This document shows, one piece after another, positions 1,409 to 10,356 of a DNA stretch of 10,356 nt (position 1 is the stretch's first letter; the number at the start of each line of letters is the position of its first letter). The stretch is from the NCBI GenBank assembly GCA_003541895.1, contig DPLR01000573.1, positions 1 through 10,356 on the forward strand. The letters run 5' to 3'. Source of the stretch: Cytophagales bacterium (GTDB lineage: Bacteria > Bacteroidota > Bacteroidia > Cytophagales > Cyclobacteriaceae). The notes below the pieces were generated by a model. The model saw nothing but the letters and a program-made list of their open reading frames with translations. It was not told the DNA's origin and did no database searches. Position numbers and translations under genes: made by a program.

Positions 1409-2071
1409 CTACTCTACTTTAATTATTTTAATAACCTGATTAGGGTTTTGCCTTGAAACCCTTAAATAAAATACTCCCTGCGCCAAATCAGATAAATAAA
1501 TTTCGCTATTGATAATAGTGCATTGCTTTATTGAAATACCATCGCTATTGAGCAGGTCAACATTCAAATTATCTGGACAGTCAAACCTGATCAAATTCTT
1601 AAATGGATTAGGATAAATATTTAGGGGTGCAAGATCGCCATTAACTATTCCAGTAGTAATATTTAAATTTAACGGACTCTTATATACGCCTTTTCGGGTG
1701 CCTGCAAAAATATTAGAGCCACTCACTGTAAGTGCATAAACATTTTGTTGTGACAATCCATCATTCACTTCGACCCAGCTATTTCCGCTATCGGAGGATT
1801 GGAAAACCCCGACATCAGTACCAGCAAAAACTTTTCCATCGTTAACAAGGAGACAGTAAACTTGTTGGCTTGCCATTAGGCCCTGTACCGATTTCCAACT
1901 ACTTCCGCTGTTGTTTGAAATAAAGACTCCGCCTCCATTGGTCCCTACTAAAATTGTATTACTAATAACAGCAATAGAAAGAATCCATTGATTTGTTAAT
2001 CCCGTGTTCATGGGATTCCAAGAATTACCATTGTTGGTTGAAATAAAAATTCCTCCACTAGTTCCTGCCAA
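1409..2071 (-). pseudogene. 3' fragment of frameshifted T9SS beta-propeller protein (last blades + sorting domain)
   Basis: This frame continues the protein encoded upstream at 3444-2095 after a 2-bp frameshift. It should not be read as a separate gene: its first possible start, at 2071, is a TTG that is simply the Leu codon inside the recurring blade motif ILAGTSGG, and there is no signal peptide. It carries three more Asp-box blades (STNNGNSW, SNNSGSSW, SSDSGNSW) and a last partial blade ending near residue 131. The remaining ~80 residues are a type IX secretion sorting domain. Its signs are YPNPF near 1601-1615, then DLLNSDG, LSDLAQGVFYLRV, and a lysine-rich end (VIKIIKVE). In the family this tail directs export across the outer membrane by the Por system and is usually cleaved, leaving the protein on the surface or released. 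The gene converges on gltD, with 83 bp between the stop codons. Confidence 0.8.
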
Positions 2072-3340
2072 AATATTATTGCCAATAACCGCACAATAGC
2101 TCTAGTGTCAGAATAAGTCAAACCATTACTTGCAAGTGTCCATAAGTCGCCATTATTTATAGAAAGTGAAACTCCACCTTGATCGTACCCAGCTAAAATA
2201 CTGTTTCCGTTGATAGCTAAACATTGAACATTTTGATTAGGCAAACCAGTATTCACTGTGGTCCAACTGCTATCATTAGCAGATTTGAAGACTCCACCCT
2301 TAGTTCCAGCAAAAAGATTATTGCCACTCATGACTAGAGCTTGAACATATAGATTTGTTAACCCTGTATTCAATGCAGTCCACGAATCACCGGTATCAGC
2401 TGAAATAAAAAAACCTCCACCAGAAGTTCCGGCAAAAACATTGCTGCCGCTAGTGGTAAGCGCAAGAACGGATTGGTATGATAATCCCTTATTCTTTGCA
2501 ACCCAATTGTTACCATTATCACTAGAAATAAATACGCCATCGGTAGTACCCGCAAAAACATTGTTTCCATTCACAGCAATGGAAAGAATATCGAGCGAAA
2601 TCAGCCCTGTGTTCATTGCATTCCATGTGCTGCCGTTGTCTGCAGAGATGAAGATCCCATTGCCTTCAGTTCCAGCGAATATATAGCTCCCACTTACAGC
2701 AAGCGATTGAACTGTTTGAGCAGGCACCGCAGTATCTGTCCAGTTCAATCCATTATCAACGGATAGTTGAACTCCTCCGAATGTGCCAGCAAAAATGGTG
2801 CTGCCACTTACCCCAAGTGCAGGAATAGACCACGAAGACAAACCAGAGTTCACAGCACTCCAACTACTGCCGTTATTCGATGAGAGGAATACTCCTCCTT
2901 CATCAGTCCCAACAAAGATGTTGTTGCCATTCACTAAAAGGGAGCGAACATACAGATTTGTTAACCCGTTATTTACGGCATTCCAACTGCTGCCGTTATT
3001 AGTAGATAGAAAAACACCTCCGTCAAAAGTTCCAGCAAAAATATTGCTGCCGTTATTTGCGAGGCAGGTAACTGAAGCACCCAATCCATTGTTCACAGCT
3101 GTCCAACTTTCACCACTGTTAGTTGAAATAAAAACACCACCGCCAGTTCCAGCAAAAATATTGCCATCCTTTACGAGTAAGGATTCGATCGTTACACTAT
3201 TGATAATTCCATTACTTGAAAGTGACCAACTCTCGCCATTGTTTGAAGAAATAAAGATTTCGCCACCTGAGGTTCCAGCAAAAATATTGTTGTCACTTAC
3301 AGCTAGTGCAGTAATTTCGGTTCCATATGGTCCAGAAGTT
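1690..3340 (-). repeat. Degenerate tandem repeats of ~120-123 bp (propeller blades)
   Basis: The blade repeats can be seen in the DNA. On the plus strand, variants of CCAGCAAAAATATTGCTGCC recur about every 117-124 bp, near 1700, 1822, 2066, 2190, 2308, 2432, 2550, 2672, 2788, 2912, 3032, 3150 and 3272 (the ~1945 unit reads CCTACTAAAATTG instead). Neighbouring units also share the segment around CCAACTGCTGCCGTTATT. Copies near 2863-3060 are the most alike, so blade gain or loss by recombination is plausible. Confidence 0.75.
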
Positions 3341-3444
3341 CGAACCCATTGAGCATTAGACGTGTTATTCGCAAGAACAAAAAATGAAGTGGCAATCATT
3401 AGCGTCATTAACGAACATCTACTATCATGAAGTAAATTTTTCAT
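2008..3444 (-). pseudogene. 5' part of frameshifted secreted BNR/Asp-box beta-propeller protein
   Basis: This is the N-terminal part of a large exported repeat protein. Residues 1-31 form a signal peptide (hydrophobic stretch LMTLMIATSFFVLA, likely cut after SNA, before QW). Ten Asp-box repeats of about 40 residues follow, each of the form IFAGT-x-GGVFIS-x-NNG-x-SW-x-AVN-x-GL. Such repeats build beta-propellers of the sialidase/Ycf48-like superfamily, which usually bind or scaffold and are not necessarily enzymes. One box (KSANDSSW) has lost a residue, and blade 5 diverges (DTAVPAQ). In-frame homology stops near 2095, and the last ~30 residues (from about VRLLAIIFW) are out-of-frame read-through. 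With the lesion at 2092-2095 repaired, one 677-aa protein runs 3444-1409 with 13 Asp-box tryptophans plus the N-terminal QW, suggesting 14 blades or two seven-bladed propellers. The ligand is unknown. Confidence 0.8.
2092..2095 (-). other. Frameshift site: duplicated TG (CA on + strand)
   Basis: On the minus strand the gene reads ATTGTGCGGTTATTGGC. Removing one TG gives ATTGCGGTTATTGGC, which translates as IAVIGNNILAGTSGG. That matches the blade consensus exactly (compare SIAVISNTILVGT in the next blade and SIAVNGNNVFAGT earlier). The lesion is therefore most simply a +2 dinucleotide duplication, CACA at 2092-2095 on the plus strand. It could be a real mutation, a slippage variant or a sequencing error. 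Confidence 0.8.
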
Positions 3445-3566: not shown

Positions 3567-4202
3567 TTATAATTTTATATATCCCCTTCGGATAGCCTCG
3601 AGTGCCATACCGGTGCGCGTTTGTACGCTCAGTTTCCTGAACACTGACTCACGATACCCATCCACTGTGCGTTCGCTCACGCTCATGGCTTTTGCAATCT
3701 GCTCGTAGGTTTTCTCGCTACAGGCATGTAACAGAAATTGCTTTTCTTTCTCGCTCAACTGAACGGTTTCGTTGAGAGCACTTGATTTCTTCCGTAAGTT
3801 GATCAGGTTGGGGTCAGAATTATAATACCCAATCGTATAAATTTGGTTGAGTGCGAGCTCAAAATCATCGGGGTGCGTATCCTTAAAAAGATAGGCGCAA
3901 CACCCGGCCGAAAACATTTCAATAATCGATTGATCATTATCGTTCATAGAAAGTGCTGCCAGCTTTACGTCAGGGAAATTTTCTTTCATCCAATTGGCCG
4001 TCTGCACTCCGTTCATCAAAGGCATGTTCACATCGATCAATAAAATGTCAGGTTTTTTTTGAAGCTTCTTGATTTTCTCTTGGAGATCAAGACCATTAAT
4101 GGCATCGAGAACTACTTCAAAATTTTGAAAACTAGCCAACATCATCCCTAGTGATTTGCTGAATAATTGATGATCGTCTACTGTACCAATCCGAATCTTC
4201 AT
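3567..4202 (-). CDS. NarL/FixJ-family response regulator (receiver + LuxR HTH)
   Basis: This is a DNA-binding response regulator of 211 aa, probably phosphorylated by the kinase encoded immediately upstream. The receiver domain (about residues 1-120) has the acidic pair D9/D10, the phosphoacceptor D57 in LLIDVNMPLMNG, S85 at the switch Thr/Ser position and K107 in YLFKDT, so all catalytic positions are present. The C-terminal LuxR-type helix-turn-helix (about 148-210) reads LSEKEKQFLLHA, YEQIAKAMSVSERTVDGYR and VFRKLSVQTRTGM, a standard recognition helix. The ATG at 4202-4200 lies two bases after the kinase stop codon, so the two genes are cotranscribed and probably translationally coupled. 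Its targets are unknown. The next gene downstream on the same strand is the propeller protein, 122 bp away, which may or may not be one. Confidence 0.93.
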   Translation of the reverse strand: MKIRIGTVDDHQLFSKSLGMMLASFQNFEVVLDAINGLDLQEKIKKLQKKPDILLIDVNMPLMNGVQTANWMKENFPDVKLAALSMNDNDQSIIEMFSAGCCAYLFKDTHPDDFELALNQIYTIGYYNSDPNLINLRKKSSALNETVQLSEKEKQFLLHACSEKTYEQIAKAMSVSERTVDGYRESVFRKLSVQTRTGMALEAIRRGYIKL

Positions 4203-4204
4203 GT

Positions 4205-4978
4205 CTATTTGGTTATCGGGATTTGAATGCCAACTTGAGTCCCTGAATCACCAGAATCCCAACGCACGGTTCCTCCCAGTAATTGTGTTCTATTCTTAAT
4301 ATTCATGATGCCCACACCCAGCTTTGATGAGTCTGCCACGGTAAAACCAGTGCCGTCATCTTTGATGATCACATTCAAGTTGTTGGCATCTTGTTCCATT
4401 ACTATACAGATGCGTGTAGCTTTGCTGTGTTTCAATGCATTCTGAAATGCTTCTTGCACAATTCGAAACAACACCAATTGCCGATCTGAAGAGAGCTCAA
4501 CCTGCGAAGGGTGTTGGAAGGTCATTTCAAATTCTTTAGAGACATTAATCCGATTTACTTCGGCTTTCAGATTCTCAATTAAGTTGAATTTCTCTAACCA
4601 ATCTTTGTTCAGCGATTTGCTCATCGAACGCAATTCAGTGATGGCTTTTGAAACTGTCTGTTCAGCCAGTAATAATTCTTGCGTAGGTGCTGCAAGACCG
4701 CGCATCGAAACACCAATTAAAAGTTTAGAACTACTCAACAATTGCCCCACGTTGTCGTGCAACTCGGTGCTTAACTGATTCAATGTCTCTTCTTGCGCTT
4801 CAAGTCTTGTGGCAAGCAGTTCTCTTTGAAACTGGCTGTTGAGCTGTTGTTTTTCTAATGCAAACTGAAACTGCTTACGCTGGTAGATGAGTACCAAGAT
4901 GATCAGGCCCACAGCCACTAATAAAAAGAAAGCTGAGGCAATCATAATGATGGCAATTTCTTGTGATAGGCTATCCAT
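4205..4978 (-). CDS. Sensor histidine kinase, HisKA_3 / NarL-type partner, single membrane helix
   Basis: This 257-aa kinase has one N-terminal membrane helix (about residues 8-31), a positively charged stop (YQRKQ), a coiled-coil-like linker rich in Q and E (about 34-68), a HisKA_3 dimerisation domain with phosphoacceptor H74 in STELHDNVGQLLSSSKLL, and a HATPase_c domain. The N box is FRIVQEAFQNALKHSKAT (N180), the G1 box is KDDGTGF (207-212), and the later glycine motif is GVGIMNIKNRTQLLGG. There is no extracellular or PAS-like sensor domain. The upstream seven-helix gene overlaps this one, so that protein is the likely sensing partner (inference). The start at 4978 overlaps it by 37 bp. 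An alternative ATG at 4945 forms an ATGA junction with its stop codon, but would begin inside the membrane helix, so 4978 is preferred. Confidence 0.92.
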   Translation of the reverse strand: MDSLSQEIAIIMIASAFFLLVAVGLIILVLIYQRKQFQFALEKQQLNSQFQRELLATRLEAQEETLNQLSTELHDNVGQLLSSSKLLIGVSMRGLAAPTQELLLAEQTVSKAITELRSMSKSLNKDWLEKFNLIENLKAEVNRINVSKEFEMTFQHPSQVELSSDRQLVLFRIVQEAFQNALKHSKATRICIVMEQDANNLNVIIKDDGTGFTVADSSKLGVGIMNIKNRTQLLGGTVRWDSGDSGTQVGIQIPITK

Positions 4979-5628
4979 AGTACACTTCCTACTGTCAAAA
5001 GCGAACTTAAAAATAGCAGAACATTATGAACTCCCCATAACCACACAAGCATTAACTGATGGCTGTCGGTTAGTTGGTGCGAAGGTGAGATTTTGCGAGT
5101 GAGGTAATCGAATGTTAGAAAAATCAAAAAAGACCCCAAAAAATAAATGAGTTGACCCGCTACAAACCAAAAATCAAAACTCATCGACAATGGTTCATCG
5201 GTAACATTATTGAGCAATTGAACCACGTACAAAAAAATCATCACCACCATTCCGGTTGACAAAATTACATACGCCATACTATCAAAAATGGAAGTAGTAT
5301 CAGCCAAGATGAAATTGCTCAGTACATGATATACAATTTGAACCAACGCCAACAAAACAACTATACGTTTTTGGGATGAGGTAGACATTAATTGAAAAAA
5401 ATAAAAAGAAAGGCCTATCGAAGTAACTATACATAGTCGATTGTAGATTTCAAGACCTGAAGTTTCTTGCACCAATGCCTTCAAAGCAAAAATAAATGCC
5501 ACAAAAAAATAGGCCATCAGAATCTTATACTTCAATTCACCCGAAAACCTCCGGCTATAAATAGCAGTGCCAGTCGTAAACAGCGCGTACGATACAGGAG
5601 TCAACAAAAAGGATATAAAGTAATTCAC
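4942..5628 (-). CDS. Seven-helix membrane protein, putative sensor partner of the adjacent histidine kinase
   Basis: This integral inner-membrane protein has about seven hydrophobic helices: NYFISFLLTPVSYALFTTG, ILMAYFFVAFIFALKAL, LCIVTSIGLSFYFFQL, VVLLALVQIVYHVLSNFI, MAYVILSTGMVVMIFLYVV, FWFVAGQLIYFLGSFLIFL and MLVWLWGVHNVLLFLSSLL. No catalytic motif was found. Its stop codon lies inside the kinase gene (37-bp overlap), which argues for coupled expression and a shared job. I favour a start near the GTG at 5628-5626 or the TTG at 5646, just before helix 1, as in the related protein at 9673. The frame stays open to an ATG at 5760, but that version would translate straight through a perfect 41-bp palindrome, which looks intergenic. 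The start is therefore uncertain. I do not recognise a named family; a signal-sensing role is inferred from context. Confidence 0.75.
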   Translation of the reverse strand: MNYFISFLLTPVSYALFTTGTAIYSRRFSGELKYKILMAYFFVAFIFALKALVQETSGLEIYNRLCIVTSIGLSFYFFQLMSTSSQKRIVVLLALVQIVYHVLSNFILADTTSIFDSMAYVILSTGMVVMIFLYVVQLLNNVTDEPLSMSFDFWFVAGQLIYFLGSFLIFLTFDYLTRKISPSHQLTDSHQLMLVWLWGVHNVLLFLSSLLTVGSVLWIAYHKKLPSL

Positions 5629-5672
5629 TTTGCTTACAGAGCCCAAAGAAGGGTAAAATTTTGCTTCCGCGC

Positions 5673-5713
5673 TACGGGAAAATTCCCGTATCGGATACGG
5701 GAATTTTCCCGTA
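5673..5713. repeat. Perfect 41-bp palindrome in the divergent intergenic region
   Basis: Two 20-bp arms (5673-5692 and 5694-5713) are exact reverse complements around a single G at 5693. Each arm is itself nearly palindromic: TACGGGAAAATTCCCGTA on the left, TACGGGAATTTTCCCGTA on the right. The element is thus built from nested inverted repeats of TACGGGAA. It may be a REP-like dispersed palindrome, a double operator for the divergent genes, or a cruciform/hairpin element. No T-run follows on the plus strand (GTATTGAC), so it is not a classical terminator. Confidence 0.85.
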
Positions 5714-5821
5714 TTGACAAGACCAATAATCCTTAACAAATTTGGGCAACTGAATTTCACACGGATTAAAGGCAGTTGGATGCTCCAGGTTTTACTCAGT
5801 TTCTAACTTCAACAGGTGGCG

Positions 5822-6703: not shown

Positions 6704-6805
6704 GTTTGGTGCAAATCAGTGCCCGCCAAAAACTCGATTTCAAAAAAATACAGCCCACACAAACAAAATTCAGCTTAAAGTACCTAAATTTTGCAACTAA
6801 GCTTT

Positions 6806-7693
6806 ATGTTGGCAACCTCAACTACCAGCCTGTTGCAAAATTTATCAGTGTCTCTTTTTAGCAAGATATTGCTCATTGAGCAAGCCAATCTTCAGTCCGT
6901 TGTCGAAACACAAAACGAACAAATACAGCGCACACTTCTGTATGCACTCATTCCCGTGGTCGTTGGGTTTTCTTTTATTGTATTTGTGATTTACCGCGCC
7001 AAGCGAGAGTCTTTGTTTCGGCAGAAAGAGGCCGAGTTCAAATTATCGCTGGCCGAAAGTGAACTTAAAATGCTACGGTCTCAAATCAATCCGCATTTTA
7101 TTTTCAATTGCATGAACTCCATTCACCATTACATGCACAGCCATGACACTGCTGGCGCAGCCGACTATTTAATAAAATTTTCTCAGCTGATCAGGCACGT
7201 ACTTGAAACTTCCTCACAGCGAATGGTTTCCTTAGCCGATGAGGTAGAGTCATTAAAAAACTATATGCAATTAGAACAACTCCGGATGAATAATGCTTTT
7301 GAATTCAATGTTGAAATCCATAAGGAAATCGATCCAGAGCAAATTCATATTCCACCCATGTTGCTTCAGCCCTTCATCGAAAATTCCATCTGGCATGGCG
7401 TTAATCACGATGGCAAAACCGGAAAAATAAATGTGATGTTGGGTATAAAAGACGATCGGCATGTGCAGTGCATTATTGAAGACAACGGCACAAAGCCCGT
7501 AGAAAAAATGAGTCATGATCTGTCGCACGTTGTTAAAAAAACTTCGCTCGGAATTCAACTCATTCATCAACGGATGGAAACCATCAATCAACTTTATCAA
7601 TCAGAAGCCGGATTTATGCTGGAAGATAGGTTGAACGAACAAAAACAAATTTTGGGAAAACGCACAACCGTAACTTTACCCTTTGAAGATTAG
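6806..7693 (+). CDS. LytS-type sensor histidine kinase (His_kinase family), single membrane helix
   Basis: This 295-aa kinase belongs to the LytS/YehU group that pairs with LytTR regulators. A membrane helix lies at about residues 44-63 (LLYALIPVVVGFSFIVFVIY), followed by a charged coiled-coil linker (65-90). The His_kinase domain has phosphoacceptor H97 in RSQINPHFIFNCMNSIHHY, then NYMQLEQLRMNNAFEF and IPPMLLQPFIENSIWHG with N193. The ATP-binding domain has EDNG at 225-228, but the second glycine of the usual DNGxG is a Lys (EDNGTKP); LGIQLIHQRMETINQLY follows. No separate sensor domain is present: the first ~43 residues are the only extra sequence. ATG 6806 is chosen over a TTG at 6791. The stop codon is 6 bp before the LytTR regulator gene, so they form an operon. 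Confidence 0.92.
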   Translation: MLATSTTSLLQNLSVSLFSKILLIEQANLQSVVETQNEQIQRTLLYALIPVVVGFSFIVFVIYRAKRESLFRQKEAEFKLSLAESELKMLRSQINPHFIFNCMNSIHHYMHSHDTAGAADYLIKFSQLIRHVLETSSQRMVSLADEVESLKNYMQLEQLRMNNAFEFNVEIHKEIDPEQIHIPPMLLQPFIENSIWHGVNHDGKTGKINVMLGIKDDRHVQCIIEDNGTKPVEKMSHDLSHVVKKTSLGIQLIHQRMETINQLYQSEAGFMLEDRLNEQKQILGKRTTVTLPFED

Positions 7694-7699
7694 CTACCT

Positions 7700-8443
7700 A
7701 TGAATTATAAAGTTGCCATCGTAGAAGACGAAAAGCATCAGCAAGATCGATTAACGAGTTTGCTTGAAAAGTACCCGGAGTTTAAAATCATGGGTATAGC
7801 TCCCACCATTGACGAAGCAAAAAAATTATTGACCAGCCAAACCCCTGACCTGGTCTTCATGGATGTAATGCTTCCGCCACATACCTCTTTCGACCTGCTT
7901 AAAACTTTTACGCACATCCCCTTCGAAATTATTTTCACTACTTCATTTGAAGAATATGCCGTGAAAGCCTTCCGCCTTGCGGCCATCGATTATTTACTAA
8001 AACCACTGGTGGCCGAAGAACTAGCTTCTGCCCTTTCTAAATTCAAACAAAAAAATTCGTTAGATAACCGCACCAAGCATTTTCAGAATTTTATTAGCAA
8101 TGTACAAAACGCACAAGTTCCGCGCATCGCTTTACCAACCAACACAGGTTATATCTATATAAGTCCCTCAGAAATTGTTCGCTGCGAATCCGATGATAGC
8201 TATTCAACATTTTATACTACCGATAAGCGTCAATTGATTATTTCACGATCTTTAAAAGAATGTGAGCAAATATTATCCGATTATCATTTCTATCGGATTC
8301 ACAATTCACATCTAATCAACCTCAAGTACATCTCTGAATATACAAAAGATGATGGTGGTACCGTAAAAATGACGGATGGCTCTCAAATTGAAATATCGCG
8401 AAGACGAAGAGATGAATTTCTACGACACTTAAAGCATTTTTAA
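7700..8443 (+). CDS. LytTR-family response regulator (receiver + LytTR DNA-binding domain)
   Basis: This 247-aa transcription regulator is the partner of the LytS-type kinase just upstream. The receiver domain (1-~118) keeps the acidic cluster E9/D10/E11, phosphoacceptor D55 in LVFMDVMLPP, T80 and K101 in DYLLKPL, so it should be phosphorylatable. The LytTR domain (about 140-247) is recognised by YIYISPSEIVRCESDDSYST, RSLKECEQIL, FYRIHNSHLINLKYI and the basic end ISRRRRDEFLRHL. LytTR domains bind paired short direct repeats about two helical turns apart. Three bases after this gene's stop codon begins an array with a 21-bp period, which makes it a natural candidate binding site. The targets are unknown. 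Confidence 0.94.
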   Translation: MNYKVAIVEDEKHQQDRLTSLLEKYPEFKIMGIAPTIDEAKKLLTSQTPDLVFMDVMLPPHTSFDLLKTFTHIPFEIIFTTSFEEYAVKAFRLAAIDYLLKPLVAEELASALSKFKQKNSLDNRTKHFQNFISNVQNAQVPRIALPTNTGYIYISPSEIVRCESDDSYSTFYTTDKRQLIISRSLKECEQILSDYHFYRIHNSHLINLKYISEYTKDDGGTVKMTDGSQIEISRRRRDEFLRHLKHF

Positions 8444-8446
8444 ATT

Positions 8447-8527
8447 ACCGAATTCCAACCCAAACCCACCGAATTCCAACCCAAACCCACCGAATACGAA
8501 TTCGTCCTTTTCCGAATACAATACCCG
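8447..8527. promoter_or_regulatory. 21-bp-period direct-repeat array, candidate LytTR operator
   Basis: Four units with the core CCGAAT begin at 8447, 8468, 8489 and 8511, a spacing of 21, 21 and 22 bp, so all lie on one face of the helix. Units 1 and 2 are identical over 21 bp (ACCGAATTCC then AACCCAAACCC). Unit 3 keeps ACCGAATAC and contains the palindrome ACGAATTCGT at 8496-8505. Unit 4 is TCCGAATAC. The array lies between the LytTR regulator stop codon and the start at 8557. The binding role is inferred from period and position. Confidence 0.6.
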
Positions 8528-8556
8528 TTTATTTTTGGATTGTAAATCATTCGCAC

Positions 8557-8820
8557 ATGGCAAAAATGACGGCTTCAACCCATATCATTAAGGGTTCTCT
8601 TTGGCTATACTTGGACAATCAGCAAATCATGAGCAACACCGATGCAGTGGAAGTAGAACTAGAAGAAGGAAAAGACTACATCATCCACTGGTTTGTGAAA
8701 GGTGGCGCAGGTACTCAATACTCATTAACAATATCATCGCCCAAAGAAGCTCAATTTCACTTAAACAAAATGCTTCAGGCTTCAGGCAAGGATGTTGGTT
8801 CATTGCAATTTGGAGCCTAA
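8557..8820 (+). CDS. Small protein of unknown function, probably beta-rich
   Basis: I do not recognise this 87-aa protein. It has no signal peptide and no membrane helix. The sequence alternates in a way that suggests beta-strands (GSLWLYLDNQQI, AVEVELEEGKDYIIHWFVKGG, TQYSLTISS) followed by one helix (KEAQFHLNKMLQASG), so a small beta-sandwich with a C-terminal helix is plausible. The ATG at 8557 follows the 21-bp repeat array by about 30 bp with no Shine-Dalgarno sequence, which is usual in this phylum. A second ATG lies three codons later (8566). The next gene starts 35 bp downstream on the same strand and ends at a terminator, so the two are likely cotranscribed, possibly under the LytTR regulator. 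Confidence 0.75.
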   Translation: MAKMTASTHIIKGSLWLYLDNQQIMSNTDAVEVELEEGKDYIIHWFVKGGAGTQYSLTISSPKEAQFHLNKMLQASGKDVGSLQFGA

Positions 8821-8855
8821 CTGTTTGTGTACTCACTAACCAATTATTAATAACT

Positions 8856-9611
8856 ATGTCTGATTTAATCTCGTACCAAAAAATCCCCGGTGCACCCGCT
8901 CAAGGAGGGCGCGGAGCACCACCTGCACTCGATCTGATTTACAATTACCTCAACGAGCCCGGCTTACGAGGTATGTCAGACCTAACGTTGGGCGGCACTT
9001 TTCCTACGGAAATTTTTCGACTCAGCAAGATTGCTTTCGGCAAACAATTCTGGTATTGCTATGATCGAAAGAATGAAAAAGTATTTCTCGCGTTAGAAGA
9101 TGCCTACTACGGGTGGTCGAGAAAAATGACGGTGAAACAAATTCCGTCCCTTCCCGACAACGATGTCCTTCACCGGTCGGGTATAACTTTTGCGTTTGAT
9201 GACAAGCACTATGATCGCACCAACAAAACCGATGTTGATCGGTTTATGCGGTCGCATGTTGATCCTCCGCGAGCATCACGCACAATCAACTCGCGTGACG
9301 TTGTGCGTTTGGGCAAGGAGTTCGTAAAAACATTTGGAGGGAAACAACGAAGAAAAGAATACTGCTATTACCCACTGGGGTATTTTGAGAATTTCCAACT
9401 CGAAACCAAGCGATGCATACTCGATGAATTTCTCGCGCAAGGCAAATTCAAATACATCCGCTATTTTTTCGGGTTAGACAAAACGCCCGGACACAAAGCC
9501 AACCGTATGCGAATCATCCTGTTTCCGGTGGATAACAAAAGTAAAGTCCACCCCATTATATTCGGAGGGGGAGGCAGTGGTTCACAGGCCTCGTTTCCTC
9601 CACCGCCATGA
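8856..9611 (+). CDS. Protein of unknown function with Pro/Gly-rich ends
   Basis: I do not recognise this 251-aa protein. It begins MSDLISYQKIPGAPAQGGRG with a Pro/Gly-rich N-terminus and has an aromatic, charged middle (KQFWYCYDRKNEKVFLALED, DAYYGWSRK, KEYCYYPLGYFENFQLETK). It ends in a low-complexity tail, FGGGGSGSQASFPPPP. There is no signal peptide, membrane helix or T9SS domain. The frame is open upstream to 8601, but that part overlaps the previous gene, and ATG 8856 comes 35 bp after its stop. The C-terminal tail looks flexible and could be a linker, export or interaction segment. The gene ends five bases before an intrinsic terminator, closing a likely two-gene operon with 8557-8820. 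Confidence 0.8.
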   Translation: MSDLISYQKIPGAPAQGGRGAPPALDLIYNYLNEPGLRGMSDLTLGGTFPTEIFRLSKIAFGKQFWYCYDRKNEKVFLALEDAYYGWSRKMTVKQIPSLPDNDVLHRSGITFAFDDKHYDRTNKTDVDRFMRSHVDPPRASRTINSRDVVRLGKEFVKTFGGKQRRKEYCYYPLGYFENFQLETKRCILDEFLAQGKFKYIRYFFGLDKTPGHKANRMRIILFPVDNKSKVHPIIFGGGGSGSQASFPPPP

Positions 9612-9672: not shown

Positions 9673-10308
9673 ATGAGTTTCAACTCTCAGTACTTAGCTT
9701 CCATTGTATCGGCCCTTTCGGTGCTGCCGGTCTTAATTGTCGGGGTTGTCTATTTTAACTCCCTGCCAACGCTGCTAAAAAGAGCATTATTTCTTTTTTG
9801 GTTGGGTTTATTCACTGATCTATTTGGTTGGTATTGTTACTTAACCAACAATGCCAGTGCTAACATCATCGCTTTCAATTGTTACATGATCCTTGAGTAT
9901 TCCTTTTATGCCTGGTTCGTTGGTCAAGTCTTGTACGATCATAAGAGGAGTATACTTTTAAGACGAGCTTGGATTGTGCTTATACCACTTTGGTTTCTCA
10001 CTATCCGCATGGATGAGAACCACCGATTTTTTAGTTTAACAATTCAAATTTTGCTGTCATTACTTTTGAGTTTCTGCATACTGCGGCACGTTGAAAATGA
10101 ACGCGAGCCCTACGGTAAGGCAGTCTTTTGGATTTTGCTTGGTTCTTTCTTCTATTATTTCTGCACATTCTTTTTTATGGGATTCCTCAACGTGAAGTTC
10201 ATCTTAAAAATTTGGCACATAAAAAACATTGTAGGCATTACCAGCAACGCCATTTTTTTCTATGGATTTTGGATAGAGACACGAAAGCAAGCCCGTAAAA
10301 TGACCTAA
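9673..10308 (+). CDS. Seven-helix membrane protein, related to the protein at 4942-5628
   Basis: This 211-aa integral membrane protein has about seven hydrophobic helices: IVSALSVLPVLIVGVVYF, RALFLFWLGLFTDLFGWY, IAFNCYMILEYSFYAWFV, AWIVLIPLWFLTI, FFSLTIQILLSLLLSFCIL, VFWILLGSFFYYFCTFFFMG and WHIKNIVGITSNAIFFYGFW. The last two match the pattern of the protein at 4942-5628: FW-x4-G-x3-Y-x4-F, then W-x2-[HK]N, with a similar SFY stretch in helix 3, so I read them as one family. The frame is open upstream to a GTG at 9577, but that start would lie inside the preceding gene and read through the terminator; ATG 9673 begins directly before helix 1. It is alone in its transcription unit within the window. 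By analogy a histidine kinase gene may follow outside. Confidence 0.78.
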   Translation: MSFNSQYLASIVSALSVLPVLIVGVVYFNSLPTLLKRALFLFWLGLFTDLFGWYCYLTNNASANIIAFNCYMILEYSFYAWFVGQVLYDHKRSILLRRAWIVLIPLWFLTIRMDENHRFFSLTIQILLSLLLSFCILRHVENEREPYGKAVFWILLGSFFYYFCTFFFMGFLNVKFILKIWHIKNIVGITSNAIFFYGFWIETRKQARKMT

Positions 10309-10315
10309 CCATTTG

Positions 10316-10356
10316 ACCGAATTCCGGTCAAAACCTACCGAATTCCAACCCAAACC
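10316..10356. promoter_or_regulatory. Second 21-bp-period repeat array, cut by window edge
   Basis: Units start at 10316 and 10337, again 21 bp apart. The second unit (10337-10356) is identical over its 20 visible bases to the first unit of the array at 8447-8466. The first unit differs and forms an inverted repeat, TTGACCG-AATTC-CGGTCAA (10313-10331). Like the first array it begins a few bases after a stop codon (10306-10308). More units may follow past the window. Confidence 0.55.

What the first reader, a model, noticed from the sequence alone, without database searches (positions are those of the whole stretch)
8447..8527. Helically phased 21-bp repeat array directly after a LytTR regulator gene
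Seen: four CCGAAT cores at 21/21/22-bp spacing, two of them identical over 21 bp, three bases after the stop of a LytTR response regulator and about 30 bp before an unknown gene pair. Known: LytTR regulators such as AgrA and ComE bind two ~9-bp direct repeats whose starts are 21 bp apart. Inference: this is a multi-site LytTR operator controlling 8557-9611, giving a binding motif (ACCGAATTC-like) for a Bacteroidota LytTR regulator.
Basis: partly seen in the sequence, partly recalled or inferred. Interest (0 to 1): 0.72.

Follow-up and report, generated by a model that had tools for sequence, protein, structure and literature searches.

The report
Operator array for a LytTR regulator
A row of evenly spaced DNA repeats beside a bacterial regulator gene is very probably the landing site with which that regulator switches on its neighbouring genes, and the same row is kept, in the same place, in many related bacteria.

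Summary
In detail: CCGAAT cores start at 8448, 8469, 8490 and 8512 (spacing 21/21/22), right after a LytTR regulator gene. The locus HK–LytTR–p8557–p8856–p9673 recurs in relatives, mainly Cyclobacteriaceae, and the stretch after LytTR carries two or three ACC[AG]NNTNCT sites 21 bp apart: 29 of 35 named loci at spacing 21, at most 3 of 35 at any other spacing 12–35; 0 of 45 other LytTR loci at 21 by the same threshold. A second array of this kind follows p9673 in 16 of 33 loci and on this contig. The Bacteroidota −7 box TAnnTTTG lies at offset 42 (2 × 21 bp) from the last site in 23 of 64 arrays; shuffled 95th percentile of the maximum, 5. In the window it is TATTTTTG at 8530–8537. Most likely the LytTR regulator binds head to tail on one DNA face and recruits RNA polymerase to the p8557 unit and to a variable downstream gene. 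LytTR operators, triplets included, are known (PMC11347149, PMC6193735), so this is a new member of a known kind. Binding is not shown. The three target proteins have no Pfam match, and the second array may be expanded.

The parts
8447..8456 (+). operator site 1 (ACCGAATTCC)
8468..8477 (+). operator site 2 (ACCGAATTCC), 21 bp on; the full 21-bp unit 8447-8467 is repeated identically at 8468-8488
8489..8498 (+). operator site 3 (ACCGAATACG), last site in the conserved 21-bp register
8511..8520 (+). fourth core (TCCGAATACA), 22 bp on, off register, inside the predicted promoter spacer; role uncertain
8530..8537 (+). predicted Bacteroidota -7 element TATTTTTG (TAnnTTTG), offset 41 from the base before site 3
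6791..7693 (+). LytS-type histidine kinase (PF06580)
   Evidence: matched beside the regulator in the 14 other loci
7700..8443 (+). LytTR response regulator (PF00072 + PF04397)
8557..8820 (+). target 1, p8557: 87-aa protein without Pfam match, predicted all-beta (mean pLDDT 96.7)
8856..9611 (+). target 2, p8856: 251-aa protein without Pfam match
9673..10308 (+). target 3, p9673: 211-aa hydrophobic protein without Pfam match
10316..10356 (+). second array, two in-phase sites; continues beyond the window through 246 N to contig position 10639, with a -7-like TAGGTTCG at offset 42 of the last site, ahead of a gene that starts at contig 10721

Best explanation
The array is an activator operator for the LytTR response regulator encoded just upstream. 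Each ACC[AG]NNTNCT site takes one LytTR domain; sites repeat every 21 bp, two helical turns, so regulators line up head to tail on one DNA face. The last site lies 41-42 bp upstream of the -7 box, again two turns, which would place the bound regulator next to sigma at a promoter whose -33 element is weak. When the adjacent LytS-type kinase phosphorylates the regulator (invariant receiver Asp55), it switches on p8557-p8856-p9673 and, through a second array, the gene or genes after p9673. Shown here: the repeats, their conservation, spacing and register to the -7 box, and their restriction to this locus type among the LytTR loci compared. Inferred: binding, activation, phosphorylation control, and the signal.
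For: Self-similarity at lag 21: z 10.6 for 16 loci, 9.0 without the window, 3.8 for the 5 most distant. A three-site model scores 426 bits at spacing 21; next best of spacings 15-28 is 198. First array in 29 of 35 operon loci, second in 16 of 33; first array in 18 of 23 protein clusters at 70% identity, window counted. Lag-21 z 13.9 in 35 operon loci, 0.6 in 45 other LytTR loci; 0 of 45 others have a 15-bit pair at spacing 21 within 130 nt of the stop. Profile search hits outside the training loci: four directly after a LytTR gene, one before a LytS-type kinase, one after p9673. -7 box with at most one mismatch at offset exactly 42 in 23 of 64 automatically collected arrays plus 4 at 41; shuffled maximum over offsets 3.4 on average, 95th percentile 5. 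Same site frame as published LytTR sites, e.g. BrsR ACCACTTAT-12-ACCGCTTAT (PMC6193735).
Against: No binding or expression data. 6 of 35 loci lack a 15-bit pair at spacing 21 after LytTR (L138, L142, L144, L146, L153, L166); L142 has sites 31 bp apart, and in L144 short repeats of another kind follow LytTR. The window's sites 1-3 lack the T at core position 9 and score 7.1-9.1 bits each, below the best relatives at 11-12. The fourth site is off register. Loci are related, so z values are not independent trials. 41 of 64 arrays do not have the -7 box within one mismatch at offset 42; of the two extra arrays of G046 that were read, one has no -7-like sequence at offsets 41-43 and one a weak one. 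Over whole loci of the 45 other LytTR genes, spacing 21 also has the largest pair count, 10 against 1-8, which may hint at a few sites there, and L198 has an ACCGAA pair 21 bp apart below threshold.
Confidence: 0.88

Rival explanations
1. The same architecture, but the regulator acts as a repressor: bound at the array and at the fourth site in the promoter spacer it blocks RNA polymerase, as CoxC does at an operator overlapping the -35 box.
For: CoxC binds three repeats overlapping -35 and represses (PMC11347149, passages). The window's fourth core at 8512 lies between the expected -33 position and the -7 box.
Against: In relatives the last site is 41-42 bp upstream of the -7 box and leaves the core promoter free; passages of PMC11347149 say most LytTR-type regulators bind upstream of -35 and activate.
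Confidence: 0.08
2. The repeats are the operator of a different DNA-binding protein, and the LytTR gene is only a neighbour.
For: Adjacency is not binding; no footprint exists. The loci were gathered by their LytTR gene, so its presence in them is by construction.
Against: Arrays also follow LytTR genes that have other genes downstream (G075, G340, G327); an array profile that knows nothing of proteins led to LytTR genes; spacing and site frame are those of published LytTR sites.
Confidence: 0.06
3. A plain tandem duplication (satellite or slippage) without regulatory role.
For: Two units are identical over 21 bp including the linker, and the same 20-mer recurs in the second array, so recent duplication did happen in this genome.
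Against: In relatives the linkers differ while eight C positions within the three cores are invariant in 14 aligned arrays; spacing and position are kept in 18 of 23 protein clusters, window counted.
Confidence: 0.03
4. An RNA element in the leader of p8557.
For: The array is upstream of a coding sequence.
Against: No Rfam match in the window, folding z-score -1.0, no terminator-like site in 8300-8700, and the predicted -7 box puts the transcription start downstream of the array.
Confidence: 0.02

Closest known systems
LytTR operators of S. mutans and other LRS (HdrR, BrsR; PMC6193735, passages seen)
   Same: 9-bp direct repeats with 12-bp spacer (21 bp start to start) just upstream of the core promoter; sites such as ACCACTTAT/ACCGCTTAT share ACC[AG]NNT
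   Different: There two sites, a soluble LytTR regulator and an inhibitory membrane protein; here up to three sites, a LytS-type kinase and receiver-LytTR regulator, and a C at core position 8 (CCRNNTNCT)
RcoM1 and CoxC operators (PMC11347149, passages seen)
   Same: Three direct repeats at two-turn intervals recognised by LytTR domains
   Different: Site TTCNNGCA / TTNNNGCN; CO-related regulators without a separate kinase gene in the passages; the CoxC operator overlaps -35 and represses
LRS-like operons of Bacteroides thetaiotaomicron and B. ovatus (PMC6193735 Table 3, passages seen; presumed from sequence there)
   Same: Bacteroidota; repeats such as TCCGGTATTCA-11-ACCGGAAATCA upstream of TGTA-19-TATCTTTG promoters
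   Different: Two 11-bp repeats at 22 bp; LytTR regulator with transmembrane segments and an NfeD/DUF2154 membrane protein; unrelated gene set
LytS/LytTR two-component systems BtsS/BtsR and YpdA/YpdB of E. coli (PMC4847170, PMC5552118, passages seen)
   Same: LytS-type kinase plus LytTR regulator; the YehT (BtsR) oligonucleotide in PMC4847170 holds ACCGCTTA and ACCACTCA 21 bp apart (counted by eye)
   Different: Known targets are transport proteins; the YpdB operator is described as two sites; no p8557/p8856/p9673 mentioned

Membership tests
LytTR operator (direct-repeat type) | Direct repeats of about 9 bp, 10-13 bp apart | tested here: met
   9-bp core CCRNNTNCT, 21 bp start to start; 21 preferred over the other spacings 12-35
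LytTR operator (direct-repeat type) | A LytTR-domain regulator encoded with the operator | tested here: met
   PF04397, E 4.8e-18, protein 7700-8443
LytTR operator (direct-repeat type) | Sites just upstream of the core promoter | tested here: met
   -7 box at offset 41-42 of the last site; by sequence only
LytTR operator (direct-repeat type) | Bound by the LytTR protein | not testable with these tools
   Needs gel shift or footprint
LytS/LytTR two-component system | PF06580 kinase beside a receiver-LytTR regulator | tested here: met
   pair kept in relatives
LytS/LytTR two-component system | Conserved phospho-acceptor Asp and Lys in the receiver | tested here: met
   D55 and K101 invariant in 16 aligned regulators
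Bacteroides-type LRS-like operon | Membrane-embedded LytTR regulator with NfeD/DUF2154 partner | tested here: not met
   Receiver-LytTR regulator; no NfeD or DUF2154 match in the 10 window proteins scanned
RcoM/CoxC-type operator | Triplet of TTCNNGCA-like repeats | tested here: inconclusive
   Triplet and spacing alike, site sequence different

The most novel reading that the evidence does not exclude
The array is a portable, expandable promoter unit: this two-component locus captures changing cargo genes by placing the same phased operator before them, and in this genome the 21-bp unit has been copied between two promoters and amplified in the second (both flanks of the N stretch lie within the repeat; if the stretch were filled with units and its length were right, about 16 copies), so copy number could tune output. 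Three conserved target proteins without Pfam match would be the core of an undescribed envelope or cargo-handling system.
Probability: 0.25. Interest if true: 0.65.

Novelty: new member of a known kind. Interest (0 to 1): 0.48.

Why it matters
It gives a testable DNA code for a LytS/LytTR two-component system in Cytophagales, with site, spacing and distance to the -7 box defined from dozens of loci. That allows regulon prediction by sequence in related genomes and points to a conserved gene set of unknown function together with its regulator and further targets.

Tried and rejected
Rejected: RNA element; plain satellite; a genome-wide repeat family; a property of LytTR genes in general. CCGAAT pairs in other genomes: L044 lies within a gene, L048/L050 are 11-bp repeats within a gene region of G044, L046 has no LytTR or operon match nearby, L047 is an intergenic three-site array of G046 without LytTR nearby, and L049 is the G075 array after a LytTR gene. 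The pair search AGAANNYGGT-N0..30 in 62 genus genomes gave no overall excess over its reversed control; 7 of its listed matches are at spacing 21, 5 of these in G046 (one at its operon), 1 beside the operon of G018 and 1 in G002 that was not followed up. Of the 30 loci stored from the profile search, 11 hold a LytTR, LytS-type kinase or operon-gene match within the 3-kb locus (5 of them from training loci) and 19 hold none and are taken as chance. G253 and G307 seem to carry the same proteins as named loci L134 and L161, so these two add little to the named set. Fold searches of p8557 and p8856 against the PDB found nothing with E at or below 0.001. A protein search with p8557 found 4 proteins, one of them the window's own. 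Rows set aside: L090 and L094 were left out of the profile because their best register overlapped the stop codon. In the first -7 test 3 of 35 loci with best pairs under 13 bits were left out, the 22 second arrays were hand-picked, and the window's second array was entered one base late; corrected, that set gives 20 of 56 at offset 42 and 4 at 41. I therefore rely on the automatic set. The shuffles keep base composition only. The -7 consensus uses only the 45 of 56 arrays selected for 4 of 6 matches, so its -7 columns are biased. The site model includes the window and G075.

Full report
Observation. The array is as described: cores at 8448, 8469, 8490 and 8512, two identical 21-bp units, 3 bases after the LytTR stop. 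Pairs of CCGAAT at this spacing are far above chance in the window. In the assembly, 74% complete, 5 of 7 such pairs lie on this contig, and the 5 exact matches to ACCGAATTCCNNNCNAAAC are all on it. The contig goes on past the window: a second array starts at 10316, is interrupted by 246 N, resumes at 10608 and ends near 10639, about 80 bp before a gene that starts at 10721. I cannot tell whether the N are an assembly gap or a withheld stretch. Both edges lie within the same repeat.

Setting. Upstream are a LytS-type kinase (PF06580) and a receiver-LytTR regulator (PF00072, PF04397); downstream are three proteins without Pfam match. 15 of 146 genomes, the window's included, have a p8557 match. 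In the 14 others the order HK-LytTR-p8557-p8856-p9673 is kept, except that p8856 was not matched in G060 in that scan; it was in the later one (L127). A scan of named genomes kept the best 80 LytTR loci; 35 have p8856 or p9673 homologues downstream and are called operon loci, 45 do not. A kinase of the same family was matched in 35 of 35 operon loci; the LytTR gene is there by construction. Operon loci include Algoriphagus, Aquiflexum, Cognataquiflexum and Mariniradius of the Cyclobacteriaceae, and Chryseolinea, Flexithrix and Roseivirga (Cytophagales from memory).

Conservation of the array. Within the LytTR-to-p8557 gap, bases match at lag 21 more than at any other lag 5-40: z 10.6 for 16 loci, 9.0 without the window, 3.8 for the five most distant. 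An unsupervised three-site model gives 426 bits at spacing 21 against at most 198 at the others of 15-28 and yields CCRNNTNCT. In 14 aligned arrays the invariant columns are eight cytosines in the cores. In 23 operon loci from genomes not used for the model, the mean best pair score is 15.4 bits at spacing 21 and at most 4.7 at the others of 12-35; 21 wins in 17 of 23. In the 45 other loci the mean at 21 is -1.3, and 21 wins in 5 of 45, the next in 4. The lag-21 z is 13.9 for the 35 operon loci and 0.6 for the 45 others; in the 35 loci, lags 7 and 14 are also raised (8.1 and 6.5), to which short repeats such as those in L144 and L157 probably contribute. Loci with a pair of at least 15 bits after LytTR: 29 of 35 at spacing 21, at most 3 of 35 at any other; 19 of 23 for genomes not used for the model. 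Of the 45 others, 0 at spacing 21 and 1 at 33. By protein clusters at 70% identity, 18 of 23, the window counted.

Further arrays. Over whole loci, pairs at spacing 21 number 75 in operon loci, against 0-13 at other spacings; the 13 are at 31 bp, one more helical turn. In the 45 other loci spacing 21 has 10, the largest of counts 1-10, so a weak signal there is not excluded. 69 of the 75 are not inside a predicted gene. Within 300 nt after the last p9673, 16 of 33 loci have a pair at spacing 21, at most 2 at any other. The genes that follow arrays differ: among 10 scanned, a DUF900 hydrolase, a metallo-beta-lactamase with helix-hairpin-helix, a phage tail collar domain, a subtilase plus trypsin, a hybrid kinase, and five without Pfam match. 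The profile search found arrays directly after LytTR genes in G203, G253, G340 and G327, before a LytS-type kinase in G296 and after p9673 in G307. G075, G340 and G327 have other genes downstream. G046 has further three-site arrays away from its operon; one has no -7-like sequence at the expected place.

Promoter. Arrays were aligned on the last site, offset 0 being the base before CC. Among 64 automatically collected arrays, TAnnTTTG with at most one mismatch occurs at offset exactly 42 in 23 and at 41 in 4; the highest count over offsets in shuffles averages 3.4, 95th percentile 5. First arrays alone: 10 of 30 at 42 and 3 at 41; the rest: 13 of 34 at 42. By cluster in the earlier, partly hand-picked set: first arrays 11 of 22 at 42, 3 of 22 at 41, none at 40 or 43. 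In the window it is TATTTTTG at 8530-8537, offset 41 from site 3. A weak signal, T at 0.80, 23 bp before the -7 box may be part of the -33 element (selected set). TAnnTTTG as the Bacteroidota -7 element is from general knowledge; the Bacteroides promoters in PMC6193735 (passages) read TATCTTTG. The fourth core of the window falls in the spacer before the -7 box.

Mechanism. The regulator family, site frame, two-turn spacing and promoter-proximal position all match known LytTR activators. I infer head-to-tail binding of two or three regulators and contact with RNA polymerase. The signal is unknown; the kinase domain begins at residue 91 of 300 and p9673 is hydrophobic, so sensing through a membrane partner is possible but unsupported.

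Known and new. CoxC and RcoM1 bind triplets at two-turn intervals (PMC11347149, passages). LRS regulators use ACC-type sites 21 bp apart, and Bacteroides LRS-like operons have 22-bp repeats before -7 boxes (PMC6193735, passages). YpdB and YehT sites appear in PMC4847170 (passages); PMC5552118 (passages) compares these systems in gamma-proteobacteria. Searches for LytTR with Bacteroidetes, Bacteroidota, Flavobacterium, Cytophag-, direct repeats and binding motif in the open-licence library listed no paper whose title or shown abstract start names a LytTR site or this locus in Cytophagales; most listed papers were not opened, and most papers of subscription journals are not in that library. So the kind is known; the member, its motif and its gene set appear undescribed as far as these searches reach.

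Limits. All evidence is comparative sequence. Loci are related, and the site model was trained on loci that include the window. About two-thirds of the arrays do not show the -7 box at offset 42 within one mismatch (41 of 64).

Noticed in passing
window 5673-5713: Two adjacent palindromes, TACGGGAAAATTCCCGTA and TACGGGAATTTTCCCGTA, near the start of the minus-strand gene group 3567-5760 (LuxR-type regulator, HisKA_3 kinase, unknown protein); possibly the operator of that system.
   Followed up: no
L008 358-603 (contig 10357-10602): 246 N flanked on both sides by the same 21-bp repeat; the second array may be much longer than what can be read.
   Followed up: partly
L048 1501-1550 (G044): Five CCGAAT units at 11-bp spacing inside a gene region made of two overlapping minus-strand frames that look restriction-enzyme-like (from memory, no search); 11 is not a multiple of three, so phase variation is possible.
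   Followed up: no
L144 and L157 after the LytTR stop: Long stretches of short repeats (TCAATGA-like) between LytTR and the next operon gene in two Algoriphagus loci; the array is absent there in L144 and lies 843 bp downstream in L157.
   Followed up: partly
L128, L130, L136, L137, L151: Extra tandem copies of the p9673 family after the first one.
   Followed up: no
window 1409-3444 (-): Protein of repeated NNGxSW-type units split over two overlapping frames (2008-3444 and 1409-2071), with a secretion-sorting-like end (from memory, no search); possible frameshift in gene or assembly.
   Followed up: no
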